Source: Dyadobacter sp.
GTDB lineage: Bacteria; Bacteroidota; Bacteroidia; Cytophagales; Spirosomataceae
DNA length: 64,000 nucleotides
NCBI RefSeq assembly: GCF_017744695.1
Contig: NZ_JAGIAS010000008.1
Location: 327,082-391,081, forward strand
Reading direction: 5' to 3'
The notes under the pieces were generated by a model. It did no database searches. It was not told the origin of the DNA and saw nothing but the letters and a program-made list of their open reading frames with translations. Positions 40,718 through 58,488 of this stretch are shown here, in pieces (positions within the stretch are counted from its first letter, which is position 1; each line of letters begins with the position of its first letter). Both the position numbers and the translations under genes were made by a program.

Positions 40718-43039
40718 TCAACTCTTCGTTATCGTCTCCTCCATATTATACAGCGTGTTGATCACACGCATCAGTGCTGCTGCACGCACGGTATCGGCCT
40801 TTGCTTCGTGCGGGAATTCGCCTACATTCAGGACTTTGGCTGCATTGTCTTTTTGTTTCGAGAACATGGAGGCCTCTTCATGGTAATATTTTTTGAGCAA
40901 TTCCACTTCCTTGTCTGTGGGCTGGCGGCACACAATCGCCTGGAAGGACGAACGGATATTGGTCTCGACATCGGTCGATTTCGCTACCAGGCGTTCGGCC
41001 ATCACACGGGAAGCTTCCAGCACGGTCGGGTCGTTCAGCATCACCAGCGCCTGCAAAGGGGTATTGGTTTTGGAACGTTTTACCTCGCAATGGTCGCGGT
41101 TGCTGGCATCGAAAATGATCATCGACGGCGGCGGCACGGTCAGTTTGATGAACGTGTACATCCCTCTGCGGTACAACGCATCGCCTTTGTCCTGCTGGTA
41201 GGTGCGCAGGGTGCCCCGTCCCGAGGTCGCGGCTTCCCACAAGCCTTTCGGCTGGTAAGGTTTTACACTCGGCCCACCGATTTTGGGATTCAGCAAACCA
41301 CTGGTCGACAGCACCATATCACGGACCAGCTCCGCCGGCAGGCGGTAGCGCGGGCCGCGCGAGAGGTAAATATTTTCCGGGTCGGCTTTTAGCTTTTCGT
41401 CGGTGACTTTGGCGGATTGCCGGTAGGTGGCGGAAGTCACGATCTGCTTGACAAGCCTTTTAATGTCCCAACCGTGGTTCATGAAGTCGACGGCAAGCCA
41501 GTCGAGCAATGCGGGGTTCGTAGGCAAGTCGCCCTGCATTCCAAAGTCCCCCGTGCTTTTCACGATTCCCCTTCCGAAAAACTCCTGCCATATCTGATTA
41601 ATAAACACCCTGGCTGTAAGCGGATTGCTCTTACTGGTTGTCCATTTGGCCAATCCTAACCGGTTTTGCGGTAGTTTGATGGTGTCAAAACGCATTACCG
41701 CCGGTAATGCAGAGGCGGTAACCACCCTACCCGGCGCATCGTACGAACCACGGTTGAGGATATGCGTAGGCCTGAGTGTATCCAGGTCGCCCAGCACCGA
41801 TACCATCAGACGGCTGGTATCCGGCCGGTTGATGAACGAGAGCAGCGTCCGGGCCTCTTCGTCCGAGATGGTCATGATCGGGTTTTTAGCCGGTTTTGTC
41901 TGCGAGATATCCCCCTCAAAACCGGACTCTTTGGAATTATTAAAAAATGCGAACATCCGGTAGTAGTCTTCCTGCGAAATAGGATCATACTTGTGGTCGT
42001 GGCATTGCGCGCACTCGACAGTAAGCCCCAGCACGCCCGTACTGAATGTCTTTGTTTTATCGATATTGTATTCGATTCGGTATTCTTCGGGGATCACCCC
42101 GCCTTCTTCGGTGTATTTATGGTTTCTGAAAAATGCCGTAGCCAGTATCTGCTCCTTATTGGCATTAGGCAGCATATCGCCTGCTATCTGCCACATCAGG
42201 AACTGGTCATACTTCATATTCTTGTTGAATGCGTTGATCAGCCAGTCGCGCCACGGCCATTGTGTACGCACTTCGTCGTCCTGGTAACCATAGGAATCGG
42301 CGTAACGCGCTACGTCCAGCCAATGAACAGCCATCTTTTCGCCATAAGTTTTCTGTGCCAGCAACTGATCCACTACTTTTTCGTAGGCTTTGTCGCTTTT
42401 ATCGGCTTCGAACTGCTGCTGCATTTCCACGGTCGGCGGTAACCCTGTCAGGTCCAGTGCCACCCTTTTCAGCAGGTGACTTTTGGCCGCTTCATCGTTG
42501 GGTGCCAATCCGGCGCCCTCCATTTTGCGCGACACGAAATGGTCTATTTCGTTTTTGGGCCAGTCTTCATTGGAAACTTCGGGCACCGCCGGCAACACCG
42601 GTGCGGTGAACGCCCAGTGCCGCTCGTACTTGGCACCTTCTTCGATCCATTTCTTCACCAACCCGATTTCGTTTTCATTCAGCAATCCCAGGTGCGACTC
42701 AGGCGTGGGCATTTGGTAAGACGGGTCCGGCGAGGTAATTCTTCTGTACACTTCCGACTGCTCCGGCTTGCCCGGGAAAATCGCCACGCCTTTTCCGTCT
42801 TTCAGCTTGGCATAGGCGCTTTCAGCCAGATCGAGCCTCAGCCCGGCCTCCCGCTTTTTGGCATCGGGGCCATGGCATGCGAAACATTTATCGGATAAAA
42901 TGGGCCGGATATCAAAATTATAACTCACGGCTTCACTACCCGACTGGGACTGCAACACGCCGTTCTTTTTGAAACAAGAAACCGCCAGAAAAGCAACGGC
43001 GCCGGATAGTACCCCCAGATACAAGAACTTCTTTTTCAT
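40718..43039 (-). CDS. PSD1 (DUF1549/DUF1553) planctomycete-type cytochrome lipoprotein
   Basis: A protein of 773 residues. The signal ends in FLAVSC, so it is probably a lipoprotein. A planctomycete cytochrome c domain carries CFACHGPDAKKR at about residue 50. A DUF1549 (PSCyt2) domain follows with HWAFTAP, RVALDLTGLPP and a second haem-like motif CAQCHDHKYDPIS. The DUF1553 (PSD1) domain is C-terminal, with NPLTARVFINQIWQEFFGRG. The activity of this family is not established. Neighbours are a sugar permease upstream (18-base gap) and a DUF1501 gene downstream. A TTG start at 43057 is possible; the ATG at 43039 is preferred. Confidence 0.88.
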   Translation of the reverse strand: MKKKFLYLGVLSGAVAFLAVSCFKKNGVLQSQSGSEAVSYNFDIRPILSDKCFACHGPDAKKREAGLRLDLAESAYAKLKDGKGVAIFPGKPEQSEVYRRITSPDPSYQMPTPESHLGLLNENEIGLVKKWIEEGAKYERHWAFTAPVLPAVPEVSNEDWPKNEIDHFVSRKMEGAGLAPNDEAAKSHLLKRVALDLTGLPPTVEMQQQFEADKSDKAYEKVVDQLLAQKTYGEKMAVHWLDVARYADSYGYQDDEVRTQWPWRDWLINAFNKNMKYDQFLMWQIAGDMLPNANKEQILATAFFRNHKYTEEGGVIPEEYRIEYNIDKTKTFSTGVLGLTVECAQCHDHKYDPISQEDYYRMFAFFNNSKESGFEGDISQTKPAKNPIMTISDEEARTLLSFINRPDTSRLMVSVLGDLDTLRPTHILNRGSYDAPGRVVTASALPAVMRFDTIKLPQNRLGLAKWTTSKSNPLTARVFINQIWQEFFGRGIVKSTGDFGMQGDLPTNPALLDWLAVDFMNHGWDIKRLVKQIVTSATYRQSAKVTDEKLKADPENIYLSRGPRYRLPAELVRDMVLSTSGLLNPKIGGPSVKPYQPKGLWEAATSGRGTLRTYQQDKGDALYRRGMYTFIKLTVPPPSMIIFDASNRDHCEVKRSKTNTPLQALVMLNDPTVLEASRVMAERLVAKSTDVETNIRSSFQAIVCRQPTDKEVELLKKYYHEEASMFSKQKDNAAKVLNVGEFPHEAKADTVRAAALMRVINTLYNMEETITKS

Positions 43040-43057
43040 TTGCAATTTTTTACACAA

Positions 43058-44511: not shown

Positions 44512-45777
44512 TTACAAAACTGCATTCGTTTCAATAGCAGAATCGAGGTTCACCAGCTTTCCCTCCCAGCCACACAAGGCAGCGCCGGTGCCGTAAACAA
44601 TGCACAGATCCATGGAAGCGTCGGGGCGCAATACCCTCATTTTCTGATCATCCAGCGAATGAAATCCGTTTCCTAAACTTGCGACGCCCCCTTCGTCGGC
44701 GGAGGCTTTCAGGCAGGCATCGATGTCGTACCAAAGCACACGCCGGCCAGCCGCCGTCAGCGCGGCATGCAGCTTCTGCCGGGCGACCTCCCAGGAATGC
44801 ACCTGAAAACCGTCGATCGCCGCTGTTTTCTCAAGACGGAGCTGCTCTACCAAATGATCGGTGTCATATACAGGTACCGGAGTCGCGGCACCCTCGTCGT
44901 TAATATCCCCTTCCCGGTTGGCCAGGCCTGCCGCTCCGGTCAGTATGCACGCTTCGGTGTCATCGCAAAAAGTCACATGTACTTTACTATCAAGCGATTT
45001 CAACTCATTTTCTAATGCATTGCCAAACAAATGGCCAGCCTTTGCGATGTTCCCGCCGATCACCAGCTCATCGCACCCGAAGTTTTTCAGCCATGGAAGC
45101 AGAAATTCGCCCAGGTTGGCGCCAAATTCGTGGAAAATACCTTTCGAAAGTTCCGAGTCCGTTTCAGCCAGTTCGCGTACACCTTTGATCGTCTGACCGG
45201 CAGCATGGTAGAACCAACGCGTTGAAAAGTAGTCGTCGGCAATGGAGTCCCTGAACGGCTCATTATAGAATGCCCCCGGCAATGCAGGATGACGCTCCAA
45301 CAGTTGGCCGTTTTCCATAAACGATGATCCGAAACCCGATCCGAGCGTAAGAAAAACGGTCCGTTTACTTGCCAGGCCATGCCTCGCGTAAGCACCGACG
45401 GCAAAACAATGCGCATCATTGAAAAACCGGAATGCGGTGTCGGGCATGCCGGTAGCATCTTTGAGTGCCTGCCCAAGGTGAAGCCCAAACATTTGCTCGA
45501 ACTTCCCGCCCACATCGAGGACCGTACAAACTCCCTTGGGGTAGTTGAACGGCCCGGGAAACGCGATTCCGATTCGGTCAACAGCCCCCCTGCCTGCAAG
45601 CGCCTCCGTGATACAACCACCTATGACGGCGACGATCGCCGACGCAGCGGCAAAACTATCCATCTCCTTTCGCACCAGCGGAAGCGACAGCCCGCCAGCG
45701 AGAGACATATCCACGACTCCAGCCGTAACATGGCTTCCTCCGACATCCAACCCCAGACTGACTTTCGGCGCTTTCAT
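44512..45777 (-). CDS. ROK-like sugar kinase with C-terminal accessory domain
   Basis: A 421-residue protein. Residues 1-285 form a ROK-type kinase: phosphate-binding LGLDVGGSHVTAGVVD, IAFPGPFNYPKG, the catalytic-Asp motif FFNDAHCFAVGAY, LTLGSGFGSSF and LVIGGNIAKAGHLFGNAL. The zinc-binding CxCGxxGC motif of glucokinase/NagC-type ROK proteins is missing. Residues about 300-421 are an extra domain (WYDIDACLKAS, IVYGTGAALCGWEGK) that resembles the N-terminal domain of the isomerase-like protein at 52799-54550. It heads the five-gene operon and its promoter overlaps an operator-like palindrome. The probable role is phosphorylating the imported sugar. Confidence 0.8.
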   Translation of the reverse strand: MKAPKVSLGLDVGGSHVTAGVVDMSLAGGLSLPLVRKEMDSFAAASAIVAVIGGCITEALAGRGAVDRIGIAFPGPFNYPKGVCTVLDVGGKFEQMFGLHLGQALKDATGMPDTAFRFFNDAHCFAVGAYARHGLASKRTVFLTLGSGFGSSFMENGQLLERHPALPGAFYNEPFRDSIADDYFSTRWFYHAAGQTIKGVRELAETDSELSKGIFHEFGANLGEFLLPWLKNFGCDELVIGGNIAKAGHLFGNALENELKSLDSKVHVTFCDDTEACILTGAAGLANREGDINDEGAATPVPVYDTDHLVEQLRLEKTAAIDGFQVHSWEVARQKLHAALTAAGRRVLWYDIDACLKASADEGGVASLGNGFHSLDDQKMRVLRPDASMDLCIVYGTGAALCGWEGKLVNLDSAIETNAVL

Positions 45778-45799
45778 AAGGGACTTTGTAATATATGTT

Positions 45800-45830
45800 C
45801 AAATATACAAACATATCACTAACAGTCAAA
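45800..45830 (-). promoter_or_regulatory. Promoter of the kinase-permease-cytochrome operon
   Basis: On the minus strand: TTTG at 45830-45827, a 19-base spacer, TATATTTG at 45807-45800. It matches the Bacteroidota consensus fully and lies 22 bases before the kinase ATG at 45777. The operator-like site overlaps the minus-7 element and part of the spacer, so a bound repressor would block it. Confidence 0.75.
45801..45816. promoter_or_regulatory. Operator-like site 1 (GntR candidate)
   Basis: AAATATACAAACATAT matches the consensus ATATGT-N4-ACATAT with two mismatches in the left half; the right half is exact. It overlaps the minus-7 element of the kinase promoter. Confidence 0.6.
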
Positions 45831-45990
45831 AAAGTTGCATTAAATCAACATGTAAAAATAATCAAAAATTAATATAACTAATTCATTTAAAATTAATTAT
45901 AAAAATTAATCAAAATATAGTTTTGCATTTTAGTTCTACAAGCCTCCGCAAAAGTGAAAATTTTTCGTCGAAATTTAGCCAATATGTATG

Positions 45991-46006
45991 ATATGTATAT
46001 ACATAT
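45991..46006. promoter_or_regulatory. Operator-like site 2 (GntR candidate)
   Basis: ATATGTATATACATAT is a perfect 16-bp palindrome and an exact match to ATATGT-N4-ACATAT. Its core GTATATAC fits the GTnTAnAC pattern reported for the HutC group of GntR regulators. It is 190 bases from site 1, centre to centre, upstream of the same promoter. Confidence 0.65.
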
Positions 46007-46110
46007 TAAATGCACCAGCTATACATATCTCACAAAGCTCATTTCATCCAACCCTCGAAACCTTGTCGCCCTGGCGGCAACCCGAGGTTTCATTGAGACC
46101 GGCTATAAAA

Positions 46111-46139
46111 ACCAATGGCGGGTATACCCCGCCATTGGT
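46111..46139 (-). terminator. Terminator of the third SusC-SusD operon
   Basis: ACCAATGGCGGG pairs perfectly with CCCGCCATTGGT around a 5-base loop. On the minus strand it is followed by TTTTAT. It starts 54 bases after the SusD stop and isolates susC-susD from the kinase operon. Confidence 0.88.
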
Positions 46140-46192
46140 CCCAAATACCTCAACTATTTACTAATTCACTCTATGAGATTCTGTGCCATCGA

Positions 46193-48049
46193 TCAGTAGC
46201 CCGGATTCTGTTTAAGCGCGCCATTGCTTTTCCGGATCTCGGTATTCGGGATCGGGAAGAGGTAGTAGTGGTCGCCTTTCCAGGGCTTCCGTACCTCGGC
46301 TTCGGGAATCACCCCGTAGGTATAAGCCAATTTCCCCAAAGCATCCCCGGGCTTCGCGCCTGTCCAGTCCATGGTAACCTTTGTAAGCCCTCTGATTGCT
46401 ATATCCACATTTCCGGGGGCCGCTTTCCATCGCATGAGGTCGAAGAAGCGCGAGTCTTCCAGATGCAGCTCGATAGCCCTTTCGTTCCGGTACACCCGTA
46501 CCAGCTCTGCCCCGGCACTTTTGACATCCGGCATGTTCACGGATGCCCGCTTTCTGACCTTGTTGATGTATTCCCTCGCGACTGCCTCGTTACCCAGCGC
46601 CATCTGGATTTCGGCATAGTTCAGATAAAACTCGGTCAATCTCATGAACACCACCACCTGGTTATAGTCATAGTCAAAGCTCGCACGCGGGCCGACAAAA
46701 TCGTCAGTCTTTTTGAAAGTATAACCCGTTTGTACCCGCCAGTGGAAAGGCGTGAGGCCTTTTACCCAGTAGGTTTTCGAATCGCGGCCGAAATCGAACA
46801 GGTTCTGGCCGTTTTTAGGATCCACCTTATTCGGATTGATATAAGGAGGCGCATTGTCGGGATTCGGATTAGCATCCTCCCAGTATTCGTAGAGGCGCTC
46901 GGTACTTTTCGAACCATCGACGATGTTCAGCGGACCAGCCCCCGGGTAGATCACCGCGTCATAAAACCTCGGATCCCTGTTTTTCTCCGGTTTCTGCGGA
47001 TCGTAACCCGAAGCCGCATTCACCGTTACACCATCCGCCAGGTAGGGATACTCGCCGTTGGCCATCTGGAACATATTTACAAAGTTCTGTGTAGGCACAA
47101 TCCGTTGTTGCGCATCGAAACCACTGGGCCAGTAGTCGTAGTTGTAACCCCAGCCGGGTATACGCGTAGCCGGTGTGAACGACTTTCCGAAAATCGTTTC
47201 GTCTGTTTTCAAAGGTTTTTTGAACAATGCCGCATATTCCGGGTGCAACGTAAATCCCAGATCCAGCACAGCTTTGGTAGCCGTTTCGGCCGCCTTCCAT
47301 TTGGTCAGGTCGTTAGATGGATTGTTCAGCGGGCTTGCCAGAAAAAGCAGCACCCTCGCTTTGAGTGCCATCGCCGCAGCTTTGCTGATCTTCCCGGTAT
47401 TGACCGGCACCCCATTCAAAAATCCGATAGCCTTATCCGACTCTTCCAATACAAACTTCGCGCATTCATCGAACGTATTCCGGGGCACATCAAAACTCTC
47501 CGAGTTCAGCTGAAAACCGTTTGTAATAATGGGTACGCCACCAAATGTGCGCATCAACTCGAAATACATCCAGGCACGAAGAAAATGCATCTCGCCCTTC
47601 ATGGGATCCAGCTTCTCGGCAGGAATGCTCGATTTTTCGATATTCTCAAAAAATACGTTCGTCTTTCTGATATAACCATATTCATAATCCCAAAGCGGCG
47701 TGGCATCTTGCATGGCCGCCAGATCCGAAACATTGTCCGCGGTCATATTCCCTTCGATGTAGTTACGGATACCTGCCGAGCGCTCATGGGTTTCGGGCTG
47801 GTTCACGGCAATATCCGTCAGCGCATCGTAACCGCCGGTGCCCGGTGCCCAGGGAGGCTTGATACCATTGTAAACGTTATACACATAGTTCTGAAGAAAA
47901 ACCGCATCGTTAAACACCGCCTCATCCGATATCGCGTCCAGCGGCTTCTTGTCAAGCACGTTACAGGAAGTAGCCGCGGCAATGATCCCGACGACCGACA
48001 TCGTGAAAGCCCGCTTCATGACCTGATTTTTTATAACTAAATATTTCAT
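46193..48049 (-). CDS. SusD/RagB family outer-membrane lipoprotein
   Basis: A 618-residue SusD-type glycan-binding lipoprotein, partner of the SusC just upstream (12-base gap). The lipobox is IIAAATSC, followed by the usual NVLDKKPLDAISDEAVFND. TPR-like helices include KGEMHFLRAWMYFELMRTFG. The C-terminal motif is YRNERAIELHLEDSRFFDLM. A start at the second ATG (48019, MKRAFTM) would give a more typical signal peptide than the first. It belongs to the locus with operator-like sites rather than to an ECF/FecR pair. Confidence 0.93.
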   Translation of the reverse strand: MKYLVIKNQVMKRAFTMSVVGIIAAATSCNVLDKKPLDAISDEAVFNDAVFLQNYVYNVYNGIKPPWAPGTGGYDALTDIAVNQPETHERSAGIRNYIEGNMTADNVSDLAAMQDATPLWDYEYGYIRKTNVFFENIEKSSIPAEKLDPMKGEMHFLRAWMYFELMRTFGGVPIITNGFQLNSESFDVPRNTFDECAKFVLEESDKAIGFLNGVPVNTGKISKAAAMALKARVLLFLASPLNNPSNDLTKWKAAETATKAVLDLGFTLHPEYAALFKKPLKTDETIFGKSFTPATRIPGWGYNYDYWPSGFDAQQRIVPTQNFVNMFQMANGEYPYLADGVTVNAASGYDPQKPEKNRDPRFYDAVIYPGAGPLNIVDGSKSTERLYEYWEDANPNPDNAPPYINPNKVDPKNGQNLFDFGRDSKTYWVKGLTPFHWRVQTGYTFKKTDDFVGPRASFDYDYNQVVVFMRLTEFYLNYAEIQMALGNEAVAREYINKVRKRASVNMPDVKSAGAELVRVYRNERAIELHLEDSRFFDLMRWKAAPGNVDIAIRGLTKVTMDWTGAKPGDALGKLAYTYGVIPEAEVRKPWKGDHYYLFPIPNTEIRKSNGALKQNPGY

Positions 48050-48061
48050 AGGTTCTCTGAA

Positions 48062-51000
48062 TTAGAAAGTAAGATTGAGGCCAAAGCTCAGGGTCTTCAT
48101 GTTAGGGTACGCCCCACCGTTGCCACTGAGGAATTCAGGGTCGCCGTTGCCATACTTTTTAAGCGAATTGAATAGCATGAATGCATTATCCCCGGAAACG
48201 TAGATCCGCAGAGCAGCAATCCTTGCTTTCGAAAGCAGGCTTTTAGGAAGCGTATAACCCAGCTGCACGTTTTTCATGCGCATCCAGGTGGCCTTGTGGT
48301 AATAGAAGTCGCTGTCCGAGTTTGCCAGACCGGTCGGAGCGATCATCGGTAATTCAGCATTCACATTTTCCTTGGAATAACTATTCAGCGCTACGTATTC
48401 CAGGCCGTTACCGCCCGCACCGGAGTTAAATCCTGTGCTCAGCCGGAACTTGGCACCGCTCTGTCCTTGCAGCAACATCGTCAGATCGAAATCTTTGTAG
48501 TTCAATCCTATGCTTACGCCGTATTGGGTGCTGGGGAAAATGGTTGTAACATCCAATCCTGTGACGGGGTCCTTGGCCGTATTATTGGTAGTATTGAACA
48601 TGTAACGGTCGTTGCTGTCGATTTTCCCGTCGTTATTCAAGTCGGCAAAAATCAGCCCGCCCAAGGTCGCACCCGGATACTTCACGCTGTTGTCCAGATC
48701 CTGCTGCGTCCGGTAAATACCGATGGCCTTGTACACCAGGCGGGAGCCGAATGGCTGGCCTTCCAGCTTTTGATAAGGCTCCGCCTGAGGGGTTTCATCG
48801 AAATAGATGATCTCATTTTTGTTGTAGGAGATATTTCCGTTGATACGCAGCGTGAGGTTCGAGAAGTTGTGCCGGTACCCCGCCTGCAACTCGATACCCT
48901 GGCTGTTCATCTTACCAATGTTCTCATCCGGCAGAATTAGCCCTGTGTAGCTGGGAATAGAGGCCTGCCTTCTGCCGAGGATGTGGGAAGTTTTGTTTTT
49001 GAAAATATCCGCTTCAAAAGTCAGGCGGTTATCCAGAAATGCCGCTTCCAGGCCCAAATCGGTCTTCTCGCTCACCTCCCAGGTGATATTAGGATTGGGC
49101 GTCGACTTGACGGCAATTCCGCGGGCATCTACCCCGTTCACCACCCATCCGGCGTCATAACCATAGGCGGCGATGTACTGGAACGGATTTACCCTGTCGT
49201 TACCAAGTCGTCCCCATGACGCTCTCAGTTTCAAATTACTGATGATATTCTTCGGAATGAATGCCTCGTTGCTGATCACCCAGCCAGCCGATACCTGTGG
49301 AAAAAAGCCGAAACGGGTTTCTTTCGGAAAGATCGGCGAGCCGTCATACCTCGCGCTGAAACCGAAAAGGTATTTTTCCTTAAAGTCGTAGCTGACCCGT
49401 CCGAAAAAGTTCTGACGCCCGGATTCGGTAGCAGTACCGTCGTTATTCCAGTTCGCCCGGTTGGTACTACCCGCAAAAAGCTGGTCGATCAACGGAGAAT
49501 CGTAGCCAAGGCGCTGTGCCCAAAACAGGTTGTCATTATAGCTCATCTGCTCATAGGCCACAAATGCGCTTACTTTATGGTCCCTTGCGAACGTCGTAGC
49601 GTACGAAAGCTTCACGTTTCCGGTGGTACGCAAGCTTTGTTTGAAATCCTCTCGCAGACCGATGTCCTCCACCGTCCTGGATTGCTTTTTAACGATCGAT
49701 CCATCCGGAGCGCGCTCATAGTAAGGCCACACGTAGTTAAATTGCTTGTTGTAATCCACTGTTTTGACCAGTGAGAGGTAGCCGTCCAACGCCAGTCCTT
49801 TCACGAACGGAATGTTGTACTTGGCCCGAAGCGTTCCGCTGGCTACATCGGCCTTATACCTGCGGTAGCCCGGGCTTTGCAGGCGTGCGGCCGGGTTCAA
49901 ATGCGACCATCCTTCACCCGGATACCGGTAATCGCCACCGATATAGGCTTCCTGCAACGGGCTCGTGCTCGCGAGCGACCCAACCTCCCCGCCGGCACCG
50001 CCCTGGGGCGTTTGGGTATATTTTTCGCGAACCGAAAGATCGAGGCCCACCTCAAAATCTTTGGTCACCGTTACATCGATATTACTTCTTACATTGTACT
50101 GTCTGAGCTTCGATTTAGTGTCGCCACGCAGGATACCGCCCTGGGAGGCCGTACCCAGCGACAAGAAGTACCTTACCCGGTCGGTTCCGCCACGCATCGT
50201 CAGCGAGTAACGCGTTTGGTGCACCGGAGGGCCTATCAGAGCATTCCACCAGTTTTCGGGCCTGCGCTCACCTTTCCTGAAGGCTTCTACCAATGCATCG
50301 GGGAAATCAGGCGGCGTTCCTTCCAGCGCCCTTCGGTCATTCAGCACCTTCATATATTGAAATGCGTCGGCCGACTTCACTTTCATCGTCGGAGACTGCC
50401 ACGACTGGGTCGTCGAGAAATCGAATGCAGGCTTTCCGGTAGTCCCTCTTTTGGTCGTGACCAGAATAACCCCACCCGCGGACTGCGCACCGTAAATGGC
50501 CGCAGAAGCATCTTTCAGTACCGAAATAGACTCGATATCGTTGGGATCCAGGCGATTCAAACCATCTGGATCAGCATTGGCTACCCCATCGATTACGATT
50601 AGAGCCGAAGTATTACGATAGGTACCCGCACCTCTCACGAGGATTTGCGAATCGTCAAAACCCGGCGCGGCGCTTCGCTGTGTCACATACACCCCTGCCA
50701 TGCGTCCGGCCAGCGAGTTGGAAAGCGATACTGCATTGGATTTCTTGATCTCCGCACCGGTTGTCTGCACCACGGCATTGGTCAACTCCGATCGCTTTTG
50801 CGTACCATACCCTACCACCACCACGTCGTTCAACTCCTGGGGCGATACATCCAGCTTCACCGCAATCGTCGACTGCGAACCAACCTTCACTTCTTTGCTA
50901 GTGTAGCCAATGTAAGAAAAAACCAGCACGCTGTTTTCGTCTTTCACCCGGATAGCGTAGTTCCCGTCCTGATCGGACACCACCCCATTATTGGTACCTT

Positions 51001-51244
51001 TTTCCAGGATGTTAACGCCCGGAATCCCAGCATTGTTTTCATCCGTAACCTTTCCGGAGACGGCTTGTTCGGCACGGGTTCGGTGTGCAGCATGTGTGGC
51101 AATGCCGGACGCCCGCCCGCCCGGTGCGCGACTGAGCGGGCCGGCATTCGCCCACGTCATGGGAGCGAGAAACCCCATCAACGCAATCCCCCATAAGGCG
51201 CACGAGGCACCGTGCCCCTTGTCAGTCAGTAGTTTTGGTTTCAT
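48062..51244 (-). CDS. SusC/RagA TonB-linked outer-membrane transporter without STN domain
   Basis: A 1060-residue glycan transporter. After the signal peptide and a Gly/Arg-rich linker (about 1-60), the carboxypeptidase-regulatory-like domain begins directly (AVSGKVTDENNAGIPGVNIL). The signature NDVVVVGYGTQKR is at about residue 140, then the plug with LIVIDGVANAD and ISVLKDASAAIYGAQSAGG, and the barrel ending in SFGLNLTF. It lacks the STN domain present in the other two SusC proteins, consistent with control by a one-component regulator and not by FecR. SusD follows 12 bases downstream. Confidence 0.94.
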   Translation of the reverse strand: MKPKLLTDKGHGASCALWGIALMGFLAPMTWANAGPLSRAPGGRASGIATHAAHRTRAEQAVSGKVTDENNAGIPGVNILEKGTNNGVVSDQDGNYAIRVKDENSVLVFSYIGYTSKEVKVGSQSTIAVKLDVSPQELNDVVVVGYGTQKRSELTNAVVQTTGAEIKKSNAVSLSNSLAGRMAGVYVTQRSAAPGFDDSQILVRGAGTYRNTSALIVIDGVANADPDGLNRLDPNDIESISVLKDASAAIYGAQSAGGVILVTTKRGTTGKPAFDFSTTQSWQSPTMKVKSADAFQYMKVLNDRRALEGTPPDFPDALVEAFRKGERRPENWWNALIGPPVHQTRYSLTMRGGTDRVRYFLSLGTASQGGILRGDTKSKLRQYNVRSNIDVTVTKDFEVGLDLSVREKYTQTPQGGAGGEVGSLASTSPLQEAYIGGDYRYPGEGWSHLNPAARLQSPGYRRYKADVASGTLRAKYNIPFVKGLALDGYLSLVKTVDYNKQFNYVWPYYERAPDGSIVKKQSRTVEDIGLREDFKQSLRTTGNVKLSYATTFARDHKVSAFVAYEQMSYNDNLFWAQRLGYDSPLIDQLFAGSTNRANWNNDGTATESGRQNFFGRVSYDFKEKYLFGFSARYDGSPIFPKETRFGFFPQVSAGWVISNEAFIPKNIISNLKLRASWGRLGNDRVNPFQYIAAYGYDAGWVVNGVDARGIAVKSTPNPNITWEVSEKTDLGLEAAFLDNRLTFEADIFKNKTSHILGRRQASIPSYTGLILPDENIGKMNSQGIELQAGYRHNFSNLTLRINGNISYNKNEIIYFDETPQAEPYQKLEGQPFGSRLVYKAIGIYRTQQDLDNSVKYPGATLGGLIFADLNNDGKIDSNDRYMFNTTNNTAKDPVTGLDVTTIFPSTQYGVSIGLNYKDFDLTMLLQGQSGAKFRLSTGFNSGAGGNGLEYVALNSYSKENVNAELPMIAPTGLANSDSDFYYHKATWMRMKNVQLGYTLPKSLLSKARIAALRIYVSGDNAFMLFNSLKKYGNGDPEFLSGNGGAYPNMKTLSFGLNLTF

Positions 51245-51523
51245 AAAAGGATAGTTTAATTAATAAAGTCCCGCCCTGCTGGTCGGAAGGCCTGCCGGGT
51301 TATGATGCTAAATTCTTCGGGTTTGCTGATGATACGTATAACGGTAATAGGTAAACGTCAATGCATCCTACCAGGCTCGCATGCGGTCGCTATGCCGCAA
51401 TTGCTCCATCTGGCAGTCCTTTGGGCTTTCTGCTTCGCTTTATACTGAAATACAAACAATGCAGCAGCCATCGGAGCGGGGCTCACGTTATTCGGTTATG
51501 ATATTATCGGTAATCGCATTTTA

Positions 51524-51539
51524 ATATGTACAAACATAT
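51524..51539. promoter_or_regulatory. Operator-like site 3 (GntR candidate)
   Basis: ATATGTACAAACATAT is an exact match to ATATGT-N4-ACATAT. It overlaps the minus-7 element of the predicted susC promoter. Further half-sites AACATAT (51541-51547) and GAACATA lie beside it. Confidence 0.65.
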
Positions 51540-51562
51540 AAACATATAATCGAACATACAAA
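51531..51562 (-). promoter_or_regulatory. Promoter of the third SusC-SusD operon
   Basis: On the minus strand: TTTG at 51562-51559, a 20-base spacer, TATGTTTG at 51538-51531. The match to the Bacteroidota consensus is complete. It lies about 290 bases before the susC ATG and overlaps operator-like site 3. Confidence 0.65.
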
Positions 51563-51776
51563 TATTATCAGAAATAATAATTCATGGATTTTGTATGAAT
51601 TTTATAAGTAAACCTCATGGCACAAAACTGAAACCCGTAGAAGTATACGTGCAGAATGGCGGTAAATGTATCTACAATTGCCGTGAGAGATTAATACGCA
51701 TTTAACCATTTACGATAGCCTATTATCAATGCGATTCAAGATGGGCCGTTAGTACCGCAGCATTTAACAAAACAAT

Positions 51777-51814
51777 GAGCCGGCCAATCCGGCTATGTCC
51801 GGACCTGGCGGCTC
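51777..51814 (-). terminator. Probable terminator of the GntR gene
   Basis: On the minus strand GAGCC at the 5' side pairs with GGCTC at the 3' side, with an inner TCCGGACATAGCCGGA hairpin, then ATTGTTTTGTT. The stem is imperfect and the U run is interrupted. Confidence 0.45.
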
Positions 51815-51841
51815 ACAAATGATGCGCAAAGATAGCGACGG

Positions 51842-52573
51842 CTACTCTCTTACACTTTCAACTGTATACACAAAGCTATCGGCGCGATAATAGCCAATGT
51901 TATACTCAATAGGACGTTCTCCCTGGTCAAACACGAAACGTTTTCTGAAAAGAATCGGACTTCCGGGTTCGACTTCCAGTTTCGCGGCCGTGAATTTGTC
52001 GGCGGCAATCGCGCTGACCTCTTCCTTCGAAAGGGTCGCGATCACCATATGGTCTTTTTCAAGAATATCGTATAATGGTCGTTTGAAATCTTCTTCACCT
52101 GTTAGTCCAACCCGTGGATGGAAATAGGAGATAAAATAGACAAACGGACCTTCGGCCTTGCCTCTGAGCCGCTCCAATTTCAGCACCTTTTTGTCGGTTC
52201 CGATATCAAAGAAGTTCGCGATTTTCTCGTCGGGCGTTACCCAGGTCACATGCAGCTCGAAATTTTTGACGATGATCCCGCGCGCATTCATTTCCTGCGT
52301 AAAACTCAGCCAGTTTTTTGATTTTGAACTAATTACAGGCTCCGTCACCTTTGTACCGACCCCTTTTTTGCGGATAAGCAATCCTTCATAAACCAGCTTA
52401 TTGAGCGCCTGGCGCAAGGTTGACCGGGAAATGGCCAGCCGCTTTGCCAGCTCCACCTCATTCGGCAAGAACTTCCCATCCAGGTGCTCCGGAGAGTTGA
52501 TCATGTTGCGCAATAGGTTCTCTGCCTGGATATGCAAGGGAACAGGACTCTTGTGATCGATACTAAATTTCAT
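51842..52573 (-). CDS. GntR family transcriptional regulator with UTRA domain (HutC type)
   Basis: A 243-residue one-component regulator. The N-terminal winged helix (about 1-70) has LPNEVELAKRLAISRSTLRQ and ALNKLVYEGLLIRKKGVGT. The C-terminal UTRA effector domain (about 90-243) has VLKLERLRGKAEGPFVYFIS and RPIEYNIGYYRADSFVY. UTRA domains usually bind small ligands such as sugar phosphates. An in-frame ATG at 52654 would add 27 residues, but a minus-7 element lies between the two starts, so 52573 is chosen. It sits between the susC-susD operon and the isomerase operon; the palindromic sites upstream of these operons are its likely targets. Confidence 0.9.
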   Translation of the reverse strand: MKFSIDHKSPVPLHIQAENLLRNMINSPEHLDGKFLPNEVELAKRLAISRSTLRQALNKLVYEGLLIRKKGVGTKVTEPVISSKSKNWLSFTQEMNARGIIVKNFELHVTWVTPDEKIANFFDIGTDKKVLKLERLRGKAEGPFVYFISYFHPRVGLTGEEDFKRPLYDILEKDHMVIATLSKEEVSAIAADKFTAAKLEVEPGSPILFRKRFVFDQGERPIEYNIGYYRADSFVYTVESVRE

Positions 52574-52599
52574 ATTGACGGATTGCAGATAGACAAAAG

Positions 52600-52607
52600 C
52601 AAAAATA
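52600..52607 (-). promoter_or_regulatory. Minus-7 element of the GntR gene
   Basis: TATTTTTG on the minus strand, 26 bases before the ATG at 52573. The minus-33 position has only TTTC. No operator-like palindrome is seen here, so self-regulation is not supported. Confidence 0.4.
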
Positions 52608-52798
52608 GCAATTTTGACCACGCCCGGAAATAATAAGCAAAACGATCCCTTCAAAGTCCCGAAACCCGCGACCTGTTATTCCAGTAAAAAACTCGCGGGC
52701 TGGTATGCGCCGAGGAGAAAACCGAGCTTACGATGCGTTACGGGAACAGGTTTTCCCATCACCTCTCCGCGCCGCGGACTATCGAAATTCCAATCCCT

Positions 52799-54550
52799 TT
52801 ATTTTCTCACATAGGCTTTCAGCGTGGCACATTTCTCCCCTATGCTCTTTCCGGACGGGGTTATCGTGTACGACGGCACATCTGCCGGCACGATAAAAGT
52901 CTCGGCATAATGGATCACATACGGCTCAAAAAGCCCGTCGGGACTCTCGACGACAGCTTCTTCGCCCTCCACCAGATTAACCACATTCAGGTTGCCATAG
53001 GTATAGTGGGTCACTTTGCTGTCGAACCAGTGCCTTCTGGTTTCAATGAACTGGGTATTGAACAGCCCGGTCGATTCTTCCATCGAATGGCCATTCATCG
53101 AAATCCGCTCAACATTATTGAAGAGGTTTTCCTTCACCCAATCCTCATCACGCCCCCAATCGATCACGTTTTTACCATGCTCGATGTTGATGGGGCGTGG
53201 CTTTCCGTCCAGCCCCAGCCTGCCCCAATCCCATAATTTGAACGTAAAAATGTAAGGGGTAGCCGAAATTTCGAGTACCACCGCATTCTTGCCGGAGCAA
53301 TGGATCGTACCGGCCGGGATCAGAATGTGGTCATGCTTTTTGACCGGTAACTTATTGACATACTTTTCCGCATCGAAATCTTCCAGCCCGCTCTGGGCTT
53401 TTTCGAGATCAGCGATCATATCGGCCGCCTTCACGCCCCTGCGCGTACCCAGGTATACGCAGGCATCCTGCCCGGCTTCGAGGAAGTAATAGCTTTCATC
53501 CTGGGTATAATCCATTCCAAAATGCTCCTTGATGTACTGCCTCGTGGGGTGTACCTGCAAGCTCAGATTGCCGCCATCCATGGTATCGAGGAAGTCGAAA
53601 CGGATTGGGAACTCGGCACCAAACAAACCGTAAATATGCTTCCCGAGCAACTGGCGGGGCCGGGTAAGCACCAGGTTGATTGAAGGCAGCTCAAAAATAC
53701 ATTCTCCAAACTTGAAGAGCAGGCTGTTTTCCTCCGGAACACAATCGAACCCCCAGGCATAGTTCACCTCTACCCGATCCAGGTCAGCGACTTCCTTCAA
53801 CCATTGCCCCCCCCATGGCCCCGGATCAAAAAACGGGACAACACGGAATGGCCGCCTGACGGCCTCATCCAATCCCTTATGGTAAAGCTGTGCATTCACC
53901 ATTTTAGGTTCGTCGTCGTGACAGGCATCAATGAAAAAATCGATTTTATCAAAGAACAGGAGCTTGTGGCGGTCGAAAACCCGCCAGTCGAGGAAATAGC
54001 CCTGCTTGTATTTCAGGGCAAATGGATCATCGGCATTATCCATGCCGAAGTTACCGACTACGCCGCGCTTCATTCTTTTCTGAATTTCCCACCGGGCCAG
54101 ATCGGCATAAATCAGCACGTCGGGCTCGGTAAAAAGGGCCGCTCCCTCTCCGTAAACAACGACTGTTCCCGAGGTAACGCTGCGAATCCGCCCGCGCGCC
54201 CGTTCCAGCTGGTCCGCATCAAAAAAATCGGCTATTTCCAGGTCATTCATTTTTCCGAAGACCTGGTCGTCGGTCACAAACGGGTACACCATCGTTCCGA
54301 TCTCGCCCGCACTTTTGAGCACATCGGTGGTATGGATTACCGTGGCGCCGGCTATGTACCGTGCGATCGCCTCACGCACCGGCCGTGTATCTACCCCGTG
54401 GTACACATCTATGCAAATCACACATTTCGGCTGGCTCGTTTCCTGAACAAAGCGCGTTATTTCCCCAAAAATATCATCCCAGCCCACAAAGCACATGTCG
54501 GAAGTTTTGCTTACTTCTATAAAGGGGTATTTATCGTAATTCGAAGACAT
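52799..54550 (-). CDS. Class I mannose-6-phosphate isomerase-like protein with extra N-terminal domain
   Basis: A 583-residue protein. Residues about 240-583 form a ManA-type cupin isomerase: GGNLSLQVHPTRQYIKEHFG gives the Gln and His zinc ligands, QDESYYFLEAG the Glu, and ILIPAGTIHCSG the His. Residues about 1-230 are an additional domain with VICIDVYHGVDTR and VVVYGEGAALFTEPDVLIYA. That domain looks like a nucleoside-kinase-type alpha/beta fold without a P-loop, and is related to the C-terminus of the ROK-like kinase at 44512-45777. It starts 2 bases after the stop of the DUF4185-like gene, so translation is probably coupled. The likely role is aldose/ketose-phosphate isomerisation of the same sugar. 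Confidence 0.8.
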   Translation of the reverse strand: MSSNYDKYPFIEVSKTSDMCFVGWDDIFGEITRFVQETSQPKCVICIDVYHGVDTRPVREAIARYIAGATVIHTTDVLKSAGEIGTMVYPFVTDDQVFGKMNDLEIADFFDADQLERARGRIRSVTSGTVVVYGEGAALFTEPDVLIYADLARWEIQKRMKRGVVGNFGMDNADDPFALKYKQGYFLDWRVFDRHKLLFFDKIDFFIDACHDDEPKMVNAQLYHKGLDEAVRRPFRVVPFFDPGPWGGQWLKEVADLDRVEVNYAWGFDCVPEENSLLFKFGECIFELPSINLVLTRPRQLLGKHIYGLFGAEFPIRFDFLDTMDGGNLSLQVHPTRQYIKEHFGMDYTQDESYYFLEAGQDACVYLGTRRGVKAADMIADLEKAQSGLEDFDAEKYVNKLPVKKHDHILIPAGTIHCSGKNAVVLEISATPYIFTFKLWDWGRLGLDGKPRPINIEHGKNVIDWGRDEDWVKENLFNNVERISMNGHSMEESTGLFNTQFIETRRHWFDSKVTHYTYGNLNVVNLVEGEEAVVESPDGLFEPYVIHYAETFIVPADVPSYTITPSGKSIGEKCATLKAYVRK

Positions 54551-54552
54551 TT

Positions 54553-55749
54553 CTATTTTGATTTGGAGCTTTGGCTAAATCTGATCCGCACAAAGCGTGG
54601 ACGGTATAAGTTAGGTTGCTTGGGTAAAACTTCCAGAAACTTGAAAGTATTGACATTATAGGAAATGAGTAATTCACCCGGTGCCGACAATGCGGGATGC
54701 GCTTTGGCATTGTAAGTAAACAAGTCCGGGTCGCGGATATCCGCTGACGTTTTGTACAATACCATTCTCGGCCCGAAAGGTCCATAAGGCGTTGGCGCCA
54801 CCTGCATACAAATTTCAGGAAAAATACTGCTCAGTTGATATACCAATACGTACTTCCCTGGGGCCAACATACTCACACTTAACTCATTCGAAACGGAATC
54901 ACTCAACGCTGTAACCGCCCTTACGTCTTTCGACCAACCCTTGTCGCCGCGGAATTCCCACTGCTCAAACGATGTAATCCGGTCCGGTTTCACCCTTGCC
55001 GCAACCAGCTTTTTGGCAGGCCCTTTAGTACCATACATGTAAACGAACCCATCGGGCGAGGCTTCCCCGGCAGCTTTGCTATTATTGTAGATACCCGCAC
55101 CGAAAGAAATCGTTTCTCCGCCGGCGTGGTAGTCATTGAACGGTAGCGCAAACTGCTCCTGATCCTCATAGGGGAAATGGCTACCTGCCGGTACCCTGAT
55201 CACCGAATTCCCGGTTTCTTTAAATGGGAATGGAGAGTTATCGTGTGTGTTGGTGATTTTGTAAGCAAAAATGAAAAGATCTTTGCCCGCATCCGGATTG
55301 ACAAACCCGTCGCCCAACCAGAAATAAGTATCCTTGTCCGGCTTATCAGTTTTAGGGATAAATACGGCCCGGTCCCCTTCCGCACCGCGTGCGATCCTGA
55401 ATGCCGCTTTGGCCGGGTCGGGTGATTTCTCCCTCAACAATGCGACCGAATTGTTTACCATCGAGAGTCCCGATTTCAGCACAGTTCCGTCAATTTCTCC
55501 CAATACCGTGTCGCTGAAAAGGAAAAGAATACTGTCCCTTTCCTGCGCATCGCGGCCCGAAAACGGGATCGCAAATATGCCATCGCCGCCCAGCCAGCCT
55601 GATTTTCGCAGGAACAGATCCGACCACTCCGGTGCCGGCGAAGCTGTGAATTCGTTCACATTCAGCTCGGGTACACCTTTCCGCGTTTGCCCGAAGGCGT
55701 ACCCGAGGCAAGATAAAGTTATCCCCAAAATCAGCGTGGTGTTCCTCAT
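54553..55749 (-). CDS. Secreted DUF4185/DUF5005-like beta-propeller protein
   Basis: A 398-residue exported protein. The signal is MRNTTLILGITLSCLGYAFG and the mature protein begins at QTRKG. The first blade has SILFLFSDTVLGEIDG, the Asp-containing FxDT motif of this family, whose fold is related to five-bladed glycosidases. Later segments include DTYFWLGDGFVNP, PYGPFGPRMVLYKTS and ELLISYNVNTFKFLEVLPKQ. It is probably a glycan-binding or glycan-cleaving protein acting outside the cytoplasm, but no activity is established. It is first in a two-gene operon with the isomerase-like gene, and an operator-like site lies about 40 bases upstream. Confidence 0.7.
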   Translation of the reverse strand: MRNTTLILGITLSCLGYAFGQTRKGVPELNVNEFTASPAPEWSDLFLRKSGWLGGDGIFAIPFSGRDAQERDSILFLFSDTVLGEIDGTVLKSGLSMVNNSVALLREKSPDPAKAAFRIARGAEGDRAVFIPKTDKPDKDTYFWLGDGFVNPDAGKDLFIFAYKITNTHDNSPFPFKETGNSVIRVPAGSHFPYEDQEQFALPFNDYHAGGETISFGAGIYNNSKAAGEASPDGFVYMYGTKGPAKKLVAARVKPDRITSFEQWEFRGDKGWSKDVRAVTALSDSVSNELSVSMLAPGKYVLVYQLSSIFPEICMQVAPTPYGPFGPRMVLYKTSADIRDPDLFTYNAKAHPALSAPGELLISYNVNTFKFLEVLPKQPNLYRPRFVRIRFSQSSKSK

Positions 55750-55787
55750 CCCTTATCCAATTTTTCCTAAATATAGTTTATATGTAC

Positions 55788-55803
55788 ATATGTATATACA
55801 TTA
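55788..55803. promoter_or_regulatory. Operator-like site 4 (GntR candidate)
   Basis: ATATGTATATACATTA matches ATATGT-N4-ACATAT except for the last two bases, and its first 14 bases are identical to site 2. An overlapping palindrome ATATGTACATAT lies at 55780-55791. It is 39 bases upstream of the DUF4185-like ATG and just upstream of a TATATTTA element that may be the minus-7. It lies about 90 bases from the nearest promoter element of the divergent receptor gene. Confidence 0.6.
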
Positions 55804-58409: not shown

Positions 58410-58434
58410 GCCGCCTTTAACAGGCGGCTTTTTT
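58410..58434 (+). terminator. Terminator of the receptor gene
   Basis: GCCGCCT at 58410-58416 pairs with AGGCGGC at 58422-58428 around a 5-base loop, followed by six T. It starts 36 bases after the receptor stop. Confidence 0.9.
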
Positions 58435-58488
58435 GTTTATCCGCACTTTGGCACAATATTTCTAGCCATATTTGCCAAAACAACCTTG

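What the first reader, a model, noticed from the sequence alone, without database searches (positions are those of the whole stretch)
45778..55803. A four-site palindromic motif links three operons into one candidate GntR regulon
Seen directly: ATATGT-N4-ACATAT occurs at 45991-46006 and 51524-51539 exactly, and at 45801-45816 and 55788-55803 with two mismatches each. All four are intergenic and lie upstream of the kinase operon, susC-susD and the DUF4185/isomerase operon. Two overlap predicted minus-7 elements. A GntR/UTRA gene sits between them. Family knowledge: HutC-type GntR proteins favour GTnTAnAC cores, and two sites contain GTATATAC. Inference: this regulator represses the locus until a sugar phosphate binds its UTRA domain.
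Basis: partly seen in the sequence, partly recalled or inferred. Interest (0 to 1): 0.7.

Follow-up and report, generated by a model that had tools for sequence, protein, structure and literature searches.

The report
Conserved GntR operator controlling mannoside genes
A short mirror-image DNA motif in front of three sugar-use operons is very probably the landing site of the repressor whose gene lies among them; the same motif accompanies the same repressor, often beside mannose-type sugar genes, in related bacteria, so this is a real but ordinary kind of sugar switch.

Summary
ATATGT-N4-ACATAT is exact at 45991 and 51524 and nowhere else in the 7.83-Mb genome. A matrix trained only outside Dyadobacter ranks exactly the four reported regions first in the window, and sites A, B and D are conserved footprints in related loci. 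Of 48 Dyadobacter genomes, 16 of 19 with the regulator (>=88% identity) carry ATATGTTTGTACATAT beside it; 0 of 19 without any relative of it carry it at all. The one-regulon reading is supported; no binding was measured. New here: (1) sites A and C are built into Bacteroidota promoters, the -7 box lying inside the operator (TTG 19-20 bp upstream in 69 of 85 such sites); (2) a third half-site often lies 8 bp from the pair; (3) a GH92 alpha-mannosidase gene on another contig has a conserved site; (4) targets in relatives include GH38 and GH92 genes, and the kinase and isomerase are fused in a Chitinophaga, suggesting alpha-mannosides, with mannose 6-phosphate as inducer. Closest known: predicted ManR (BT2103) of Bacteroides. 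New member of a known kind.

The parts
45793..45816 (-). Site A: composite operator, three half-sites, in the proximal promoter of the kinase operon (pair 45793-45808 plus third half-site 45811-45816)
   Evidence: Matrix 15.9 at 45793; conserved in L016, L018, L020, L027
45800..45807 (-). -7 box TATATTTG inside site A
   Evidence: Sequence; TTTG at 45827-45830 gives a 19-bp spacer
45827..45830 (-). -33 box TTTG of the proximal kinase promoter
   Evidence: Sequence; conserved in the alignment
45982..46006 (-). Site B: composite operator upstream of the kinase operon, exact pair 45991-46006, third half-site 45982-45987; 198 bp centre to centre from site A
   Evidence: (22.9)
45970..45977 (-). 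possible weak -7 box TAAATTTC, 4 bp beyond the third half-site of B
   Evidence: Sequence; TAnnTTT at this distance in 12 of 38 oriented class II arrangements
51524..51547 (-). Site C: composite operator in the susC-susD promoter, exact pair 51524-51539, third half-site 51542-51547
   Evidence: (25.1)
51531..51538 (-). -7 box TATGTTTG inside site C
   Evidence: Sequence; TTTG at 51559-51562 gives a 20-bp spacer
51559..51562 (-). -33 box TTTG of the susC promoter
   Evidence: Sequence
55780..55803 (-). Site D: composite operator of the DUF4185/isomerase operon, pair 55788-55803, third half-site 55780-55785
   Evidence: Matrix 17.4; a site upstream of the gene in 12 of 12 other Dyadobacter loci where the gene was found
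55768..55775 (-). probable -7 box TATATTTA of the DUF4185 promoter, 4 bp beyond the third half-site of D
   Evidence: Sequence; same TATATTTA in 7 of the 12 aligned relatives (L016-L020, L023, L027)
51842..52573 (-). GntR/UTRA (HutC-type) regulator, 243 aa
   Evidence: Pfam GntR 4.9e-15 and UTRA 6.1e-28; NagR/YvoA nearest solved structure by sequence
44512..45777 (-). ROK sugar kinase, 421 aa
   Evidence: Pfam ROK; fused to the isomerase in L089
43058..44467 (-). MFS sugar transporter (sugar porter family)
   Evidence: Pfam Sugar_tr, TIGR00879 above cut-off
40718..43057 (-). large conserved protein (label DUF1553 recalled, not tested); its orthologue has its own site in four Dyadobacter loci where no kinase was found
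39115..40575 (-). DUF1501 protein, presumed last gene of the kinase operon
   Evidence: Pfam
48062..51244 (-). SusC-like outer-membrane receptor
   Evidence: TIGR04056 above cut-off
46193..48049 (-). SusD-like lipoprotein
   Evidence: Pfam SusD_RagB
52799..54550 (-). mannose-6-phosphate-isomerase-like protein with an extra N-terminal part, 583 aa
   Evidence: Weak manA hit, 9.9e-5 and far below its cut-off; 39% identical to the isomerase part of a kinase-isomerase fusion
54553..55749 (-). DUF4185/DUF5005 protein, first gene of the isomerase operon
   Evidence: Pfam

Best explanation
The four palindromes are operators of the GntR/UTRA (HutC-type) protein encoded at 51842-52573. In its sugar-free form the dimer sits on the operators and keeps RNA polymerase off: at the kinase-proximal and susC promoters it covers the -7 box itself; at the DUF4185 promoter and the upstream kinase site it covers the region where a -33 box would lie. 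When a sugar phosphate, most likely mannose 6-phosphate, fills the UTRA domain, the dimer lets go, and outer-membrane uptake (SusC/SusD), inner-membrane uptake (MFS), phosphorylation (ROK) and isomerisation to fructose 6-phosphate are switched on together, along with a distant GH92 alpha-mannosidase. Shown by computation: the motif, its conservation, its link to the regulator, the promoter overlap at A and C, the shared targets. Inferred: physical binding, repression, the effector and the substrate.
For: A matrix from 88 sites in 67 non-Dyadobacter loci ranks the four regions first in the window; 4 Mb of simulated sequence gives no hit of 14 or more. Exact motif 35 times in 80 regulator loci, its mirror control 0; one mismatch 68 against 8. 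26 of the 35 exact and 42 of the 68 one-mismatch sites lie outside predicted ORFs, which leave only 8.3% of these loci free. 20 of 28 exact sites in the 19 genomes with the regulator (>=88% identity) lie within 12 kb of it, about 0.1 expected; canonical site near it in 16 of 19, nowhere in the 19 genomes without a relative. Footprints of A, B, D in Dyadobacter. Of ten loci with 46-77% identical regulators from a separate search, 9 have sites near the regulator and one before the isomerase gene. TTG at spacer 19/20 in 69 of 85 class I sites; third half-site at -8 in 44 of 85 against 0-6 at the other offsets from -14 to -1. NagR mapping: Arg48 (reads G at -4) kept in 80 of 80, Arg38 (reads G at -5) replaced by V/I/L/M in 80 of 80, matching G at -4 and T at -5 here; Arg133, Arg135 and Tyr167 kept in 80 of 80, Thr90 T or S. 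Downstream genes include GH38, GH92, isomerase, ROK.
Against: No binding or expression data. Of 80 regulator loci 14 have no site with up to one mismatch and 7 no matrix hit of 14 or more. Three of 19 genomes lack an exact site near the regulator; their loci (L113, L114, L029) hold matrix hits of 21.8, 14.1 and 18.0, the last two before DUF4185. 8 of the 28 exact sites lie far from the regulator. In the phylum sample 11 of 198 genomes have the regulator (E <= 1e-60) and only 2 of these have the exact 14-mer TATGTTTGTACATA; 3 others have it without the regulator. L120 has no hit of 11 or more in the 20 kb fetched. Sites B and D lack a TTTG -33 box, so occlusion is less plain there. No site precedes the regulator gene itself. 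NagR positions Ser165 (Pro in 78 of 80) and Glu145 (Phe in 80 of 80; its pocket role is recalled) differ. 8 of 23 GH92 genes have no upstream hit of 12 or more. Related loci are not independent samples.
Confidence: 0.83

Rival explanations
1. The regulator uses these sites as an activator or as a dual regulator: at promoters lacking a -33 box (B, D) the bound protein recruits polymerase.
For: B and D lack TTTG at the right spacing; NagR of Bacillus thuringiensis is called a dual regulator in its title (PMC6141813, search listing only).
Against: At A and C the operator contains the -7 box, as in 85 of 160 sites; a protein there should block. NagR of B. subtilis is described as blocking transcription (start of the abstract of PMC4333415).
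Confidence: 0.12
2. The palindromes belong to another factor, such as the Crp-like global sugar regulator whose Bacteroides motif is wwwTATGTTnTAnAACATAwww.
For: Both motifs have TATGT/ACATA arms and lie before sugar genes (passages of PMC3878776).
Against: The arms are two bases further apart in the Crp-like motif. A global factor should put sites across the genome and in genomes without the regulator; the canonical site is absent from 19 of 19 such genomes and exact sites in this genome are confined to this locus.
Confidence: 0.04
3. The repeats are only AT-rich promoter sequence: TATGTTTG is the Bacteroidota -7 box and the palindrome is chance.
For: Sites lie in AT-rich intergenic DNA, and class I sites do contain -7 boxes.
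Against: 75 of 160 sites have the palindrome without that box; the mirrored control pattern has no exact match in the same loci; footprints stand out against diverged flanks.
Confidence: 0.02

Closest known systems
ManR (BT2103), predicted GntR-family regulator of Bacteroides thetaiotaomicron (Ravcheev 2013, PMC3878776; passages seen)
   Same: GntR family; [quoted passage not shown]
NagR (YvoA) of Bacillus subtilis and DasR, GntR/HutC repressors with sugar-phosphate effectors (PMC4333415, PMC4918961; passages seen)
   Same: Same two-domain build, aligned along nearly the whole length (E 2.2e-27); half-sites six bases apart; DNA-reading Arg48 and the two phosphate-binding arginines kept.
   Different: Arg38 is V/I/L/M and the operator has T, not G, at -5; Ser165 and Glu145 differ; targets here are mannoside-type genes and the promoters are of the Bacteroidota type.
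Crp-like palindrome of Bacteroides sugar operons (PMC3878776, passage)
   Same: TATGT...ACATA arms before sugar genes.
   Different: Arms two bases further apart; up to 30 target genes per genome according to that passage.

Membership tests
GntR family, HutC subfamily | N-terminal GntR winged helix plus C-terminal UTRA domain | tested here: met
   Pfam GntR 55.4 bits (cut-off 27) and UTRA 97.8 bits (cut-off 23.8)
GntR family, HutC subfamily | Operator core GTnTAnAC (consensus recalled and as given in the finding) | tested here: inconclusive
   Sites B and D have GTATATAC; site C has GTACAAAC and site A departs further; the departing pair contain a -7 box
GntR family, HutC subfamily | Recognition-helix arginine reading G at -4 and phosphate-binding arginines, as in NagR | tested here: met
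   Positions 50, 135 and 137 are Arg in 80 of 80 relatives (NagR residues from PMC4333415)
GntR family, HutC subfamily | Binds operator and is released by a sugar phosphate | not testable with these tools
   Needs purified protein
ManR regulon of Bacteroides | Orthology of the regulator to BT2103 and shared motif | not testable with these tools
ManR regulon of Bacteroides | Targets: mannose uptake, conversion to fructose 6-phosphate, alpha-mannosidases, SusC/SusD | tested here: inconclusive
   Gene types match: MFS, ROK, isomerase-like, SusC/SusD in the window, GH92 with a conserved site on contig C2; the sugar itself is untested and the isomerase label rests on weak hits and a fusion
Bacteroidota promoter (TTTG-N19/21-TAnnTTTG, recalled) | -33 and -7 boxes at the right spacing | tested here: met
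   Sites A and C: spacers 19 and 20; TTG at 19/20 in 69 of 85 class I sites. Not met at B and D

The most novel reading that the evidence does not exclude
An old, widely spread alpha-mannoside repressor of the Bacteroidota whose operator has merged with the core promoter: three half-sites in a row (ATATGT-N2-ATATGT-N4-ACATAT) in which the -7 box supplies one arm and the spacer, so that two overlapping dimer registers compete with polymerase for the same bases, while GTATATAC-type sites upstream (B, 198-200 bp from A in five loci) add a second grip, perhaps by looping.
Probability: 0.3. Interest if true: 0.55.

Novelty: new member of a known kind. Interest (0 to 1): 0.42.

Why it matters
It turns an eyeballed palindrome into a testable operator for a regulator found in Dyadobacter, Chitinophaga, Pedobacter, Mucilaginibacter and other Bacteroidota. 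It predicts which genes respond to mannosides, adds unlinked GH92 genes to the regulon, and gives a promoter with operator and -7 box in one block, useful for reading other Bacteroidota promoters.

Tried and rejected
Looked for further sites in the own genome. C1:28234 (matrix 14.0) lies inside a 457-aa gene whose start looks like a response regulator; C10:691394 (13.0) lies between two minus-strand genes, about 220-240 bp before a 525-aa gene of no evident link (labels from sequence starts, not tested). Neither was taken as a member. The second UTRA protein of the genome (C2:114082) has no good site around it (best 1.2 in the stretch holding its gene, L100; 6.3 in the neighbouring L099). The matrix was not run over the whole genome, only over the window and fetched stretches; genome-wide evidence rests on the pattern searches, whose place lists are cut at two mismatches. 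GH38 has no match in the own genome at E <= 0.001. The other three GH92 genes of the own genome have no site of 9 or more in the stretches fetched.

Literature: Dyadobacter + GntR + mannose gave no paper; GntR/mannose/Bacteroidetes/mannosidase/operator/Pedobacter gave two listings, not opened; the search for site sequences found 32 papers with at least one of four strings; in the 15 rows shown only the short TGTATATACA occurs, the other 17 were not seen. One search listed all its 16 papers; some searches listed 15 of 2,132, 8 of 23 and 12 of 61. Of all these only PMC3878776, PMC4333415 and PMC4918961 were opened, as passages. I saw no other description of this regulon in those rows; that is not proof that none exists, and most subscription papers are not in the library.

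A first attempt to find the GH92 starts by a peptide anchor failed for 12 of 23 loci and misplaced two; it was redone with tblastn and only the latter is used, except the Fisher test of co-occurrence printed (23 of 29 against 0 of 19, p 1.6e-8), whose counts come. The test treats genomes as independent, which they are not.

Limits: one search kept the best 80 of 326 relatives, and these include many close species. The matrix is symmetric and was trained on sites with up to one mismatch, so it favours that shape. Pfam labels of downstream genes come from 55 of the 91 listed and from 9 proteins. In one search gene starts were set crudely, so its coding/intergenic labels are rough.
Full report
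CHECK OF THE OBSERVATION. The pattern ATATGT-N4-ACATAT is exact at 45991 and 51524 and has two mismatches at 45801 and 55788. In the whole genome (7.83 Mb, 17 contigs; the window is C16:327082-391081) the exact pattern occurs at two places, both in this locus; eight further places have one mismatch, and 218 places in all have up to two, against 163 for the reversed control. Of the eight, four lie inside ORFs of 180 aa or more, one in a 97-aa ORF and three outside such frames; by ORF starts none adjoins recognisable genes of this pathway. The variant TATGTTTGTACATA is exact only at site C. So two sites are strong on sequence alone and two are not.

INDEPENDENT MATRIX. The regulator was used to fetch related loci from GTDB genomes: 326 relatives, the best 80 kept, 70-100% identical, from Dyadobacter, Chitinophaga, Pedobacter, Mucilaginibacter and others. 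In them the exact motif occurs 35 times in 31 loci and with one mismatch 68 times; the mirrored control occurs 0 and 8 times. 66 of 80 loci have a site with up to one mismatch, 14 have none, and 7 have no matrix hit of 14 or more. Predicted ORFs leave 8.3% of these loci free, yet 26 of 35 exact and 42 of 68 one-mismatch sites lie there (crude gene starts). A symmetric matrix from the 88 sites in the 67 loci outside Dyadobacter scores the window: 51524 25.1, 45991 22.9, 55788 17.4, 45793 15.9; the best hit outside the four regions is 10.7. Four megabases of order-2 simulated sequence hold no hit of 14 or more.

FOOTPRINTS. In Dyadobacter loci a site precedes DUF4185 in 12 of 12 loci where that gene was found; site C precedes susC in 11 of 11 where the susC orthologue follows the regulator (L029 has a 28% identical susC there and no site at it); sites A and B precede the kinase in 4 of 4 (L016, L018, L020, L027). 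Around A, B and D the flanks differ while the composite stays. In L022, L024, L025 and L026 the downstream DUF1553-type gene has its own site (17.4, 14.9, 14.2, 14.9) although no kinase was found there. L021, with a 95% identical regulator, has no site; at matching contig coordinates G206 has that copy too, and G206 carries a second, 90% identical copy with the exact site and the operons.

PRESENCE TEST. Of 48 Dyadobacter genomes 19 have the regulator at 88% or more, 10 only 55-72% relatives, 19 neither at E <= 1e-60. Exact sites: 28 in the first group, 20 of them within 12 kb of the regulator (about 0.1 expected) and 8 elsewhere; 9 in the second, 1 near; 10 in the third. The canonical ATATGTTTGTACATAT lies near the regulator in 16 of 19 and is absent from 19 of 19 genomes of the third group; it also occurs far from a regulator once in G224 and once in G239. 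In a spread of 198 genomes of the phylum 11 have the regulator; the exact 14-mer TATGTTTGTACATA occurs in 5, in 2 by the regulator (G000, G122) and in 3 without it, so the exact form alone is a weak marker at that distance. The other ten regulator loci of that spread, 46-77% identical, were fetched: 9 have a matrix hit of 11 or more within 300 bp of the regulator and the tenth has one before the isomerase gene. Of nine further Dyadobacter regulator loci fetched, one (L120) has no hit of 11 or more in the stretch.

ARCHITECTURE. Of 160 sites of 14 or more in the 80 loci plus window, 85 contain TAnnTTTG in one orientation (class I). In 69 of these TTG lies 19 or 20 bp upstream, against 0-5 at other spacers. 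The operator is thus the -7 region of a Bacteroidota promoter (consensus recalled). In 44 of 85 a third half-site ATATGT lies 8 bp upstream of the pair, against 0-6 at the other offsets from -14 to -1. Of the 75 other sites (class II) 36 have a third half-site at 8 or 9 bp; in 12 of 38 such arrangements TAnnTTT starts 4 bp beyond it, against 0-2 at other distances. These flanks were not part of the 18-bp matrix, but related loci are not independent. Sites A (register 45793) and C are class I, B and D class II. The centres of A and B are 198, 198, 198, 199 and 200 bp apart in five loci including the window.

PROTEIN. The regulator has GntR and UTRA domains and aligns with NagR/YvoA along nearly its whole length. 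In NagR Arg38 reads G at -5, Arg48 reads G at -4, and the phosphate is held by Thr90, Arg133, Arg135, Ser165, Ile166 and Tyr167 (passages of PMC4333415). Here Arg48 is kept in 80 of 80, Arg38 is V/I/L/M in 80 of 80, and the operator has G at -4 and T at -5, with the same six bases between. Thr90 is T (41) or S (39), both arginines and Tyr167 are kept in 80 of 80, Ile166 is Leu in 80 of 80, Ser165 is Pro in 78 of 80, and Glu145 (pocket role recalled) is Phe in 80 of 80. A phosphate-bearing effector is likely; its sugar need not be NagR's.

TARGETS. Downstream genes in relatives include GH38 (9 of 55 scanned), GH92 (4), MGH1-like enzymes (4) and ROK kinases (3), besides isomerase and MFS genes. 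In L089 one 887-aa protein, 119 bp behind a canonical site, joins both activities: the window's kinase matches residues 1-458 (43%) and its isomerase 319-883 (39%). This suggests that two of the three operons serve one pathway. Far from the locus, C2:206390 carries a site (17.3) about 35 bp before a 1051-aa GH92 gene (L142); it is kept in G209, G214, G226, G224 and G241 (14.9-17.5). Overall 15 of 23 such genes have a hit of 12 or more within 500 bp and 8 do not. That GH92 occurs in 23 of 29 genomes with a regulator of either group and in 0 of 19 without. In G224 the one other canonical site lies about 75 bp before another GH92 gene.

MECHANISM. Best reading: repression by covering core promoter, relieved by a sugar phosphate, probably mannose 6-phosphate made by the ROK kinase that the regulator controls. 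An inverted repeat with a T-run after susD (46111-46139) may separate that operon from the kinase operon, which then needs A and B. The regulator gene has no site of its own; it follows the isomerase on the same strand after 225 bp and may be read through from D.

WHAT IS KNOWN. Ravcheev et al. 2013 (PMC3878776, passages) predict ManR (BT2103), a GntR regulator of mannose and mannoside genes in Bacteroides, with the same kind of target set. Whether this is its orthologue could not be tested. I saw no description of this operator in the searches named under Tried and rejected. It is a new member of a known kind with an uncommonly clear operator-in-promoter layout.

Noticed in passing
46111-46139: Inverted repeat with perfect 12-base arms, followed on the minus strand by a T-run, after susD; also present in L016, L018 and (with changes) L027: a probable terminator.
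   Followed up: partly
44512-45777 and 52799-54550: The kinase's C-terminal part and the isomerase's N-terminal part match the same middle region of the L089 fusion protein (residues about 319-458), although the two window proteins hardly match each other directly (E 0.49): each may keep a copy of a linking domain of unknown role.
   Followed up: partly
51244-51531: About 280 bases lie between the predicted susC promoter and the start codon; 237-283 in six Dyadobacter loci but 93-152 in five others: a long leader of unknown use.
   Followed up: no
L142:5391 and L142:5501 (own genome, C2): The distant GH92 promoter has two sites about 110 bp apart; the upstream one (10.1) contains TTTG followed 20 bp on by TATACTTG, so it may cover a -33 box.
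   Followed up: partly
L141:7238 (G239): A canonical site lies about 230 bp before a sigma-factor-like gene that heads a susC/susD-like cluster (labels from a look at the sequence only), in a genome with only the 55-72% type regulators.
   Followed up: no
58411-60996: Alpha-L-fucosidase-type glycoside hydrolase with F5/8 and Ig-like domains beside the locus; no matrix hit near it among the window's best 14.
   Followed up: no
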